Source: Yoonia sp. (GTDB lineage: Bacteria; Pseudomonadota; Alphaproteobacteria; Rhodobacterales; Rhodobacteraceae). From it: 64,000 nucleotides of DNA. Positions 8,949 through 9,733 of this stretch are shown here, one piece after another (positions within the stretch are counted from its first letter, which is position 1; the number at the start of each line of letters is the position of its first letter). The notes under the pieces were generated by a model. The model worked only from the letters and a program-made list of their open reading frames with translations, was not told the origin of the DNA and ran no database searches. The stretch covers positions 62,001 through 126,000 of the forward strand of contig NZ_JAGYJK010000007.1 in the NCBI RefSeq assembly GCF_018402175.1. The letters are read 5' to 3'. Made by a program: the position numbers and the translations under genes.

Positions 8949-9198
8949 ATCGACGGTTCCTTTTCAATTACGCCTGTTTTTGCGTCAACTTCTGGCACGT
9001 TTTAGGCAAGACGCAAGGGCACAACCCCACCTGCCCAATTTTGCAACAGTCAGATGACATTAGGTCAGCATAACTTATGCATTTTCTGCATAGCAGCATT
9101 GACCGATCAGCCATTGTGCAAGTGCAGCATTATCTTACATGATGGTCACAAGCGAACGGCAAGCCTGCCGCGACCAGCACAACGAAACGAGTAGTGAC
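8949..9198. other. Divergent intergenic region between mrp and the DUF1127/CcsR locus
   Basis: 250 bases without a gene. It must hold the mrp promoter and the promoter of the DUF1127-hairpin transcript. Visible items are a palindrome resembling the PhaR operators of the PHA locus (9086-9096), a second TGC/GCA element near 9118-9127, and a weak -35/-10 pair TTGTGC (9114-9119) and CTTACAT (9134-9140). In R. sphaeroides the equivalent transcript is driven by heat-shock-type sigma factors; I cannot confirm such a promoter by eye. Confidence 0.5.
9086..9096. promoter_or_regulatory. Candidate PhaR-type operator (CTGC-N3-GCAG)
   Basis: CTGC-ATA-GCAG at 9086-9096. Its context closely matches the second operator upstream of phaP (59585-59595): both read TTTTCTGCA, two variable bases, then GCAGCAT. 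The motif is short and could be chance, but the flanking identity over about 18 positions is notable. Confidence 0.4.
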
Positions 9199-9415
9199 AT
9201 GACAACCTTTAACATCACGCTTCCGACAAGCATTCCATTCATGGACCGTCTGTCCGGGCTTGCGCGCCACCCTGTCCGACAAGCTGGCCAAGCGCAAAGT
9301 GTTTCTGACAACGCTGAGCGAACTGCAGTCGCTGTCCAACCGCGATCTTGCGGATCTGGGCCTGTCGCGCTCTGCGCTGCGCGGCATCGCGCTCGAAGCT
9401 GCCTACGGCAAGTAA
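9199..9415 (+). CDS. DUF1127 small basic protein, CcaF1-like (frameshifted)
   Basis: The ATG frame at 9199 encodes MTTFNITLPTSIPFMDRLSG, then loses homology. The +1 frame from about 9260 continues with LRATLSDKLAKRKVF, the motif LSNRDLADLGLSRS and ends AAYGK at 9415. That is a complete DUF1127 protein of about 71 aa split by one extra base in GGGCTTGCGC (9256-9265). Removing either one G or one T restores SGLR. No alternative start except TTG (9260) exists in the second frame and it lacks a ribosome site. In R. sphaeroides the DUF1127 protein CcaF1, encoded just upstream of CcsR RNAs, binds RNA and affects their maturation. The position here, directly before the same kind of hairpins, supports orthology. 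It may be a pseudogene, but a consensus error is at least as likely. Confidence 0.75.
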
Positions 9416-9420
9416 TTCAA

Positions 9421-9733
9421 GAATCGGATCTGCTGCCTCCTCCCTGAAAAGGCAGATCTGACAGACCCCCGCGCTCTACCTCCTCCCGGGGCCAGGGGTC
9501 ATGATTAAGGCGGCGGCGCCCACCTCCTCCCGGGTGCCGCCGCTTTATGACACAGGTTTCGGAACCGCCCACCTCCTCCCGGGCTGGGACCGATGATACC
9601 GCCGACGGCGCCCACCTCCTCCCGGGCAAAGTTGGCGAGGACGCGCCTTGCTTCTTCTCCTCCCGAGACGCAAGGAGGCGCTGATAAAAGAGAACGGTCA
9701 TGCCCACCTCCTCCCGGGCATGGCCGTTTTTTT
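9421..9733 (+). ncRNA. ccsR: CcsR ('cuckoo') small RNA array: seven CCUCCUCCC-loop hairpins
   Basis: Seven consecutive hairpins each present the anti-Shine-Dalgarno motif in the loop. CCTCCTCCC occurs at 9436-9444, 9479-9487, 9523-9531, 9572-9580, 9615-9623 and 9707-9715, with a one-base variant TCTCCTCCC at 9656-9664. In hairpins 3, 4, 5 and 7 the loop is exactly ACCTCCTCCC closed by GCCC/GGGC-type pairs. Outer stems differ completely (for example GACCCC/GGGGTC for hairpin 2, a 12-bp GC stem at 9506-9517/9536-9547 for hairpin 3, CCTTGC/GCAAGG for hairpin 6), so structure is conserved and sequence is not. Spacing is 36-51 bases. This matches the CcsR family (CCUCCUCCC-motif stress-induced RNAs), co-transcribed with a DUF1127 gene and processed from one precursor in R. 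sphaeroides, where four RNAs are known. The last hairpin doubles as terminator. Confidence 0.9.
9694..9733 (+). terminator. Terminator of the DUF1127-CcsR transcript
   Basis: Arms 9694-9705 and 9716-9727 form a 12-bp stem with one G-T pair around the loop ACCTCCTCCC, followed by TTTTTTT (9727-9733). The seventh CCUCCUCCC hairpin therefore is also a strong Rho-independent terminator. Confidence 0.92.

What the first reader, a model, noticed from the sequence alone, without database searches (positions are those of the whole stretch)
9421..9733. Seven-hairpin CCUCCUCCC (CcsR/cuckoo) RNA array behind a DUF1127 gene
Seen: seven stem-loops in about 310 bases, six with the exact loop motif CCTCCTCCC and one with a single change, while the stems have no sequence in common. 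This is strong covariation inside one locus and means selection acts on the exposed anti-Shine-Dalgarno loop. Known: CcsR RNAs in R. sphaeroides (four copies) are co-transcribed with DUF1127 gene ccaF1 and respond to stress. New here: seven copies, a terminator that itself carries the motif, and one degenerate copy (hairpin 6). Copy number expansion and loop-exact closure by GCCC/GGGC suggest a titration device for something that reads CCUCCUCCC, such as a protein, the anti-SD region of targets, or other mRNAs with GGGAGGAGG.
Basis: partly seen in the sequence, partly recalled or inferred. Interest (0 to 1): 0.8.

Follow-up and report, generated by a model that had tools for sequence, protein, structure and literature searches.

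The report
Seven-hairpin regulatory RNA array
A bacterial gene is followed by a row of seven small RNA hairpins that display nearly the same short sequence; this is a known kind of regulatory RNA, kept in this form across the genus, and it probably turns down nutrient-uptake genes under stress.

Summary
In detail: six CCTCCTCCC and one TCTCCTCCC in seven predicted hairpins, 9424-9733. The motifs are unusually exposed (0 of 200 shuffles); five of seven stems covary.

It is a cuckoo/CcsR-type array behind a DUF1127 gene (published as CIN1 locus). Three claims of novelty fall. Seven hairpins is usual in the genus (45 of 60 loci), and Paracoccus kondratievae has twelve. The sixth hairpin is UCUCCUCCC in 35 of 45 seven-hairpin arrays, not decay. 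Rfam ar14 already ends in a motif-bearing hairpin.

New here: (1) the constant core is UCCUCCC; bases 1-2 vary. Rhizobial AbcR/NfeR1 use the same seed. (2) In this genome 16 of 41 genes with a GGGAGGA ribosome site encode solute-binding proteins, against 4 of 54 with another base in front. Dependence on the array is not shown. (3) A VtlR/LsrB-type LysR box (9087-9101) precedes the gene and 55 of 56 genus arrays tested.

The DUF1127 frame is broken in this assembly. Titration is not supported.

The parts
9060..9142 (+). Conserved promoter block (TTAGGTCAG ... TTATGCATTTTCTGCATAGCAGCATTG ... ATTGTGCAAGTGCAGCAT ... TACAT)
   Evidence: Alignment of 14 upstream regions of the genus
9087..9101 (-). 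VtlR/LsrB-type LysR box; reads CAATGCTGCTATGCA on the - strand, 13 of 15 with the reported VtlR motif CAATGCAGCCATGCA
   Evidence: motif quoted in PMC12595884; 2 of 1000 permuted motifs match the 700-nt upstream region as well
9114..9119 (+). -35-like TTGTGC
   Evidence: Lies in the conserved block; assignment as -35 is inference
9135..9140 (+). -10-like TTACAT, 15 nt after the -35-like hexamer
   Evidence: Lies in the conserved block; assignment as -10 is inference
9199..9267 (+). N-terminal part of the DUF1127 (ccaF1-like) gene, frame of ATG 9199
   Evidence: tblastn piece with query residues 1-23
9263..9415 (+). DUF1127 core in a different frame, stop TAA 9413-9415; the gene is split by a frame change in this assembly
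   Evidence: tblastn piece with query residues 23-72; Pfam DUF1127 33.8 bits, cut-off 23.3, on 9260-9412
9424..9461 (+). Hairpin 1, motif 9436-9444
9464..9500 (+). Hairpin 2, motif 9479-9487
   Evidence: covariation
9506..9547 (+). Hairpin 3, 16-bp stem, 10-nt loop, motif 9523-9531
   Evidence: covariation
9559..9593 (+). Hairpin 4, motif 9572-9580, AA/GA internal loop in the stem
   Evidence: covariation
9600..9637 (+). Hairpin 5, motif 9615-9623
   Evidence: covariation
9643..9681 (+). Hairpin 6, variant motif TCTCCTCCC 9656-9664, also found at this place in most of the genus
   Evidence: 35 of 45 seven-hairpin arrays carry it in the sixth hairpin
9688..9733 (+). Hairpin 7, 18-bp stem, motif 9707-9715, ending in a T-run: motif-bearing, terminator-like
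   Evidence: covariation

Best explanation
This is a CIN1-type locus: a DUF1127 (ccaF1-like) gene and, as its 3' UTR, a seven-hairpin cuckoo RNA ending in a motif-bearing terminator-like hairpin. Most likely the operon is switched on by a VtlR/LsrB-like LysR regulator bound just upstream of the promoter (site conserved; binding inferred). The transcript is cut between hairpins, by RNase E as in R. sphaeroides (inferred). Each unit offers the same seed, UCCUCCC, in a hairpin loop (shown in silico). The seed pairs with GGGAGGA in ribosome-binding sites and blocks translation (inferred from rhizobial AbcR/NfeR1 genetics). In this genome such sites front solute-binding proteins of TRAP and ABC-type transporters unusually often (shown by counting), so the array would lower nutrient uptake under stress (inferred). 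Several like loops on variable stems give dosage and redundancy rather than different targets (inferred). Identity of the locus: about 0.95. Full chain as stated: about 0.55.
For: Array and structure. Family: two Rfam ar14 hits (55.7 and 51 bits, E 1e-8 and 1e-7, below the 58.8 cut-off); of 16 genus genomes searched with ar14, 15 match and 8 pass the cut-off. Conservation: paired exact motifs in 52 of 56 genus genomes, 51 of 51 that are at least 90% complete and at most 5% contaminated, and in 352 of 390 genomes, 127 of 139 genera, of the order. Seed: 292 hairpins found, 277 with at most 2 mismatches; in these, mismatches fall 46 times on base 1, 15 on base 2 and 14 in all on bases 3-9. AbcR aSD1 is CUCCUCCC and acts on a solute-binding-protein mRNA by pairing at the ribosome site (PMC8844928, passages); NfeR1 has three redundant CCUCCUCCC loops that silence such mRNAs (PMC10746234, passages). 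Targets: solute-binding proteins in 16 of 41 GGGAGGA-ATG ORFs against 4 of 54 HGGAGGA-ATG ORFs, Fisher p = 0.0003; 14 of 29 against 4 of 30, p = 0.005, with the strictest start filter (all 54 controls scanned with no family list cut short). Promoter: box in 55 of 56 genus arrays tested, in 48 of them 342-354 nt before the array, against 15 other sites in 329,639 bp of other stretches of this genome. LsrB activates NfeR1 and AbcR1; VtlR activates AbcR2 and three DUF1127 genes (passages).
Against: Overall use of GGGAGGA against HGGAGGA before ATG is not array-specific: 49/84 here and 98/210 in the other array genome of the class sample, but genomes without a match reach 50/78 and 86/142 and others fall to 28/109. 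In 20 GGGAGGA ORFs from genomes of the class sample at least 2 were solute-binding proteins against 0 of 13 controls, so part of the association may not need the array. One weak suhB-like match of this genome (L439) has CACCTCCC beside it, six of the seven seed bases, so a second, AbcR-like reader is not excluded. Pairing, processing and expression were not measured. I had no search left to look for the LysR regulator in this genome. The window's hits stay below the Rfam cut-offs. The only direct CcsR target that I saw named is flhR (PMC8307010, passage), not a transporter. The DUF1127 frame is broken here. In 9 of 26 arrays of other genera the box was not found at 3 mismatches or fewer.
Confidence: 0.6

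Rival explanations
1. Ribosome mimic: the loops copy the 3' end of 16S rRNA (CACCUCCUUU, recalled) and act on translation generally.
For: Loop CACCUCCUCCC shares CACCUCCU with the 16S tail (recalled).
Against: Bases 1-2 of the motif, shared with 16S, are the ones that vary, while the CCC end, not shared with 16S, is nearly fixed.
Confidence: 0.08
2. Titration device or sponge: the array soaks up a protein (such as the DUF1127 protein) or RNAs carrying GGGAGGAGG.
For: Several near-identical loops on one transcript; CcaF1 is an RNA-binding protein and affects CcsR levels (PMC10253847, passages).
Against: GGGAGGAGG occurs only 3 times in the genome outside the array. The array is complete where the DUF1127 frame is broken. 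Base-pairing by the same seed is supported by genetics in rhizobia (passages).
Confidence: 0.15
3. Plain silencing array as in the best explanation, but controlled by RpoH sigma factors as in R. sphaeroides; the LysR box belongs to another function or is a relic.
For: R. sphaeroides ccaF1-CcsR is described with an RpoHI/RpoHII promoter (PMC10253847, figure legend).
Against: The box keeps its position (48 of 55 genus cases at 342-354 nt) and orientation (54 of 55), and in the four genus arrays where one search found no DUF1127 gene it lies 74-103 nt before the array.
Confidence: 0.2

Closest known systems
ccaF1-CcsR1-4 operon of Rhodobacter sphaeroides (CIN1 locus; Rfam CcsR1, RF02791)
   Same: 71-aa DUF1127 gene followed by tandem CCUCCUCCC RNAs and a terminator (PMC10253847, passages and figure legend; loop motif from the Rfam alignment)
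   Different: Only 39 bits to RF02791 (cut-off 65.3); seven hairpins; DUF1127 frame broken in this assembly; a LysR-type box is found here, whereas an RpoH promoter is what is described there
NfeR1 / alpha-r14 of Sinorhizobium meliloti (Rfam ar14, RF02344)
   Same: Hairpins with the same loops, variable stems, LsrB-type site upstream; tested targets include solute-binding proteins (PMC10746234, passages; PMC8844928, passage); ar14 consensus ends in a motif hairpin with U's
   Different: Three hairpins; not behind a DUF1127 gene as far as the passages say
AbcR1/AbcR2 of rhizobia
   Same: Seed aSD1 CUCCUCCC equals bases 2-9 of the motif; silences transport mRNAs; AbcR1 transcription depends on LsrB (PMC8844928, passages)
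   Different: Different RNA family (suhB, RF00519); this genome has only weak RF00519 matches (best 24.5 bits, cut-off 41), none of the five inspected with TCCTCC in the 300 nt examined, one with CACCTCCC
SmelA075/SmelA099 (cuckoo RNAs with three and four hairpins)
   Same: Same loop, variable stems, variable number of modules (PMC3927594, passages)
   Different: Three and four hairpins against seven here

Membership tests
cuckoo RNA / CIN1 locus | Several hairpins with loop CCUCCUCCC | tested here: met
   Six exact, one with a single change, all in predicted hairpins
cuckoo RNA / CIN1 locus | Stems free in sequence but kept as stems | tested here: met
   Both-side changes above all 500 shuffles for hairpins 2, 3, 4, 5 and 7; not for 1 and 6
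cuckoo RNA / CIN1 locus | Array follows a short DUF1127 gene on the same strand | tested here: met
   DUF1127 core ends 9415, first hairpin starts 9424; the frame is split in this assembly
cuckoo RNA | 2-4 hairpins per RNA (PMC4504443, passage) | tested here: inconclusive
   Seven in a row here; whether they are cut into units of 2-4 needs RNA data
Rfam ar14 (RF02344) | Score above the gathering cut-off | tested here: inconclusive
   Window 55.7 and 51 against 58.8, so not reached here; 8 of 16 genus genomes searched reach it
Rfam CcsR1 (RF02791) | Score above the gathering cut-off | tested here: not met
   39 and 21.5 against 65.3; not filed as CcsR1 itself
CcsR RNAs | RNase E processing and stress induction | not testable with these tools
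   Needs RNA data
VtlR/LsrB regulon | Binding box upstream of the promoter | tested here: met
   13 of 15 to the reported motif at 9087-9101; at 3 mismatches or fewer before 55 of 56 genus arrays; one deviation (TG to AG) from GCAT-N3-TG-N3-T
VtlR/LsrB regulon | Regulator present in this genome and binds | not tested
AbcR (suhB, RF00519) | Rfam score above cut-off in this genome | tested here: not met
   Best 24.5 against 41

The most novel reading that the evidence does not exclude
One circuit spans the Rhizobiales and Rhodobacterales: a VtlR/LsrB-type LysR regulator turns on RNAs that all display (C)UCCUCCC (AbcR, NfeR1, and here the DUF1127-cuckoo arrays), and these silence solute-binding proteins that carry a GGGAGGA ribosome site. 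In Rhodobacterales such as this one, whose genome has no suhB/AbcR match above the Rfam cut-off, the multi-hairpin array takes over the job, with TRAP and ABC uptake systems as main clients.
Probability: 0.4. Interest if true: 0.65.

Novelty: new member of a known kind. Interest (0 to 1): 0.45.

Why it matters
In the papers seen here, CcsR work in Rhodobacter and AbcR/NfeR1 work in rhizobia run side by side. The shared seed, the shared LysR box and the enrichment of solute-binding proteins behind GGGAGGA sites suggest one stress-to-uptake circuit for two large orders. The seed, the regulator site and a target list are given, so each link can be tested directly.

Tried and rejected
Copy-number expansion: rejected by the genus and order counts. 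Hairpin 6 as decay: rejected. GGGAGGAGG as the target code: only 3 sites outside the array, none with ATG at the spacing tested. General excess of GGGAGGA ribosome sites as a mark of the array: tested on 95 class genomes and not supported. I considered comparing genomes without arrays inside the order, but 32 of the 38 without an exact pair still give ar14-like matches, and the ten loci that I read mostly carry arrays with the shorter seed, so no clean array-less group remained. The control (pattern read backwards) is not empty: up to 6 matches in some genomes, probably because loops such as CCCTCCTCCTCCC also hold the reversed word (inference); it is 0 throughout.

What was dropped before counting: clusters with fewer than three TCCTCCC, closer than 20 nt, or with less than 350 nt upstream; in the L366-375 set two of the ten positive clusters share one site. 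In one search the stem and spacing filters keep only part of the hairpins (120 in the genus set), and 15 hairpins with 3 mismatches are left out of the position counts. In some searches, ORFs under 60 aa (5 of 46 target sites, 26 of 82 control sites), one repeated control entry and one of two identical control ORFs. In one search, arrays without exactly seven hairpins (15 of 60 loci); orthology there rests on order alone. Reinkensmeier and Giegerich 2015 and Gruetzner 2021 are not held; Billenkamp 2015 was not looked up.

Full report
What is there. Between the stop of a DUF1127 reading frame (9413-9415) and the end of a T-run at 9733 lie seven predicted motif hairpins. Six carry CCTCCTCCC exactly and the sixth carries TCTCCTCCC. 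The fold is far more stable than shuffles (z = -6.0). The motifs are held unpaired: 0.93 against 0.49 when only the spacers are shuffled, 0 of 200; all 52 genus arrays with six or more hairpins exceed each of their 4 shuffles. Hairpins 2, 3, 4, 5 and 7 show both-side changes above every one of 500 shuffles among the 45 seven-hairpin arrays (28 to 43 distinct sequences per hairpin); hairpins 1 and 6 do not in my ungapped test, perhaps because their loops vary in length.

Which family. Rfam finds ar14 twice (55.7 and 51 bits, cut-off 58.8), CcsR1 twice (39 and 21.5, cut-off 65.3), ar7 twice (36.2 and 31, cut-off 60) and one chance-level match. In 16 genus genomes searched with ar14, 15 match at E <= 0.01 and 8 pass the cut-off. 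DUF1127 plus CcsR-like RNAs is the published CIN1 locus (PMC10253847, passages), and cuckoo RNAs are described as 2-4 hairpins with a fixed loop and free stems (PMC4504443, passage). I file the locus as a CIN1-type cuckoo array, not as CcsR1 itself.

How widespread and how many. Two exact motifs at array spacing are found in 52 of 56 genus genomes (51 of 51 good ones; reversed control 0 in all) and in 352 of 390 genomes of the order (127 of 139 genera; reversed control up to 6 in some). In a sample of 95 genomes of the class, about one per family, a pair of CTCCTCCC at array spacing occurs in 9; this genome and its one family member have arrays, and the seven others show pairs or simple repeats that I did not follow, although one search shows array-like loci in named Rhizobiales. 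Of 60 genus loci examined (window and several secondary loci included), 45 have seven hairpins, 6 have six, one has eleven, by duplication of hairpins 3-6, and 8 have five or fewer. Paracoccus kondratievae has a DUF1127 gene (Pfam) and twelve motif hairpins counted by eye. So seven is not an expansion.

The seed. In 292 hairpins from three sets of arrays, accepted at up to 3 mismatches at any base, 277 have at most 2; in these mismatches fall on base 1 (46), base 2 (15) and on bases 3-9 together (14). The sixth hairpin is UCUCCUCCC in 35 of 45 arrays and CCUCCUCCC in 10. The constant part is UCCUCCC. This is within AbcR aSD1, CUCCUCCC (PMC8844928, passages). The variable bases 1-2 are shared with the 16S tail (recalled: CACCUCCUUU) and the fixed CCC end is not, which speaks against a ribosome mimic.

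Possible targets. GGGAGGAGG is found only 3 times outside the array in this genome. GGGAGGA within reach of an ATG is found 49 times (reversed control 4); the same with A, C or T in front 84 times (reversed control 17). After dropping ORFs under 60 aa, 16 of 41 GGGAGGA genes are solute-binding proteins by Pfam (DctP 5, Peripla_BP_4 5, SBP_bac_1 3, Peripla_BP_6, NMT1_3 and NMT1 one more each) against 4 of 54 controls; p = 0.0003, or 14 of 29 against 4 of 30, p = 0.005, with a strict start filter. Fifteen of the 16 were confirmed protein by protein; NMT1_3 was assigned to L088 by elimination. The first control list was cut at 25 of 68 families, so I scanned all 54 again in parts: still 4. A DctQ, an ABC ATPase and PufQ are also in the GGGAGGA set. 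Against a simple reading: the overall ratio of GGGAGGA to HGGAGGA sites is not special to genomes with arrays, and in genomes of the class sample at least 2 of 20 GGGAGGA genes against 0 of 13 controls were solute-binding proteins. The enrichment is therefore shown for this genome; its dependence on the array is not.

The promoter. Upstream of the gene lies a block of about 80 bp that is strongly conserved in 14 genus sequences aligned. Within it, 9087-9101 matches the reported VtlR motif CAATGCAGCCATGCA (quoted in PMC12595884) at 13 of 15 bases; 2 of 1000 permuted motifs do as well in the same 700 nt. With up to 3 mismatches it is found before 55 of 56 genus arrays, 17 of 26 arrays of other genera and 10 of 11 clusters of genomes without exact pairs. 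In the genus 48 of the 55 lie 342-354 nt before the array and three at 382-481 nt. The other four lie 74-103 nt before arrays where one search found no DUF1127 gene (L004, L034, L037, L063). Orientation is the same in 54 of 55. In other genera most lie at 333-399 nt. 130 other stretches of this genome (329,639 bp) hold 16 such sites, one of them this very site, since one stretch spans the locus. VtlR/LsrB activates AbcR, NfeR1 and DUF1127 genes in Rhizobiales (passages). In the searches, whose listings I read and of which I read passages of some, I saw no paper that ties it to the CcsR locus of Rhodobacterales; they cover open papers only.

The DUF1127 gene. In 52 of 59 other genus loci tblastn finds the DUF1127 core in one frame, in 15 of them from the first residue on; seven loci gave no hit. 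In the window the N-terminal part (ATG 9199) and the core (9263-9412) are in different frames. It may be a real frameshift or an assembly error; unbroken copies exist in relatives. The array itself is complete, including its last hairpin.

Mechanism and confidence. Shown in silico: array, exposed seed, stem covariation, conserved LysR-type box, solute-binding-protein enrichment in this genome. Inferred: transcription by the regulator, RNase E processing, pairing at the ribosome site, lower uptake under stress. Identity is about 0.95 certain, the full chain about 0.55.

Noticed in passing
window 9199-9415: The DUF1127 (ccaF1-like) gene is split between two frames in this assembly, while 52 of 59 other genus loci show its core in one frame and 15 of them from the first residue.
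   Followed up: partly
   Followed up: partly
   Followed up: partly
order scan, G194, G069, G159 (genus g14) and G186 (g69): 15-19 exact-pair matches per genome, that is perhaps 16-20 hairpins, more than any array that I could read.
   Followed up: no
L271 (own genome, contig C16, near 638970): PufQ, a photosynthesis gene (Pfam), has the GGGAGGA ribosome site; the organism is probably phototrophic.
   Followed up: partly
window 9060-9068: TTAGGTCAG, a second strongly conserved element upstream of the LysR box, of unknown reader.
   Followed up: no
L439 (own genome, contig C17, near 163690): Weak suhB-like match (22.5 bits, cut-off 41) with CACCTCCC beside it; could be an AbcR-like RNA.
   Followed up: partly
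L034, L037, L063 (unnamed genus genomes): Second, short motif arrays elsewhere in some genomes, without a DUF1127 hit, with the LysR-type box 74-82 nt before them.
   Followed up: partly
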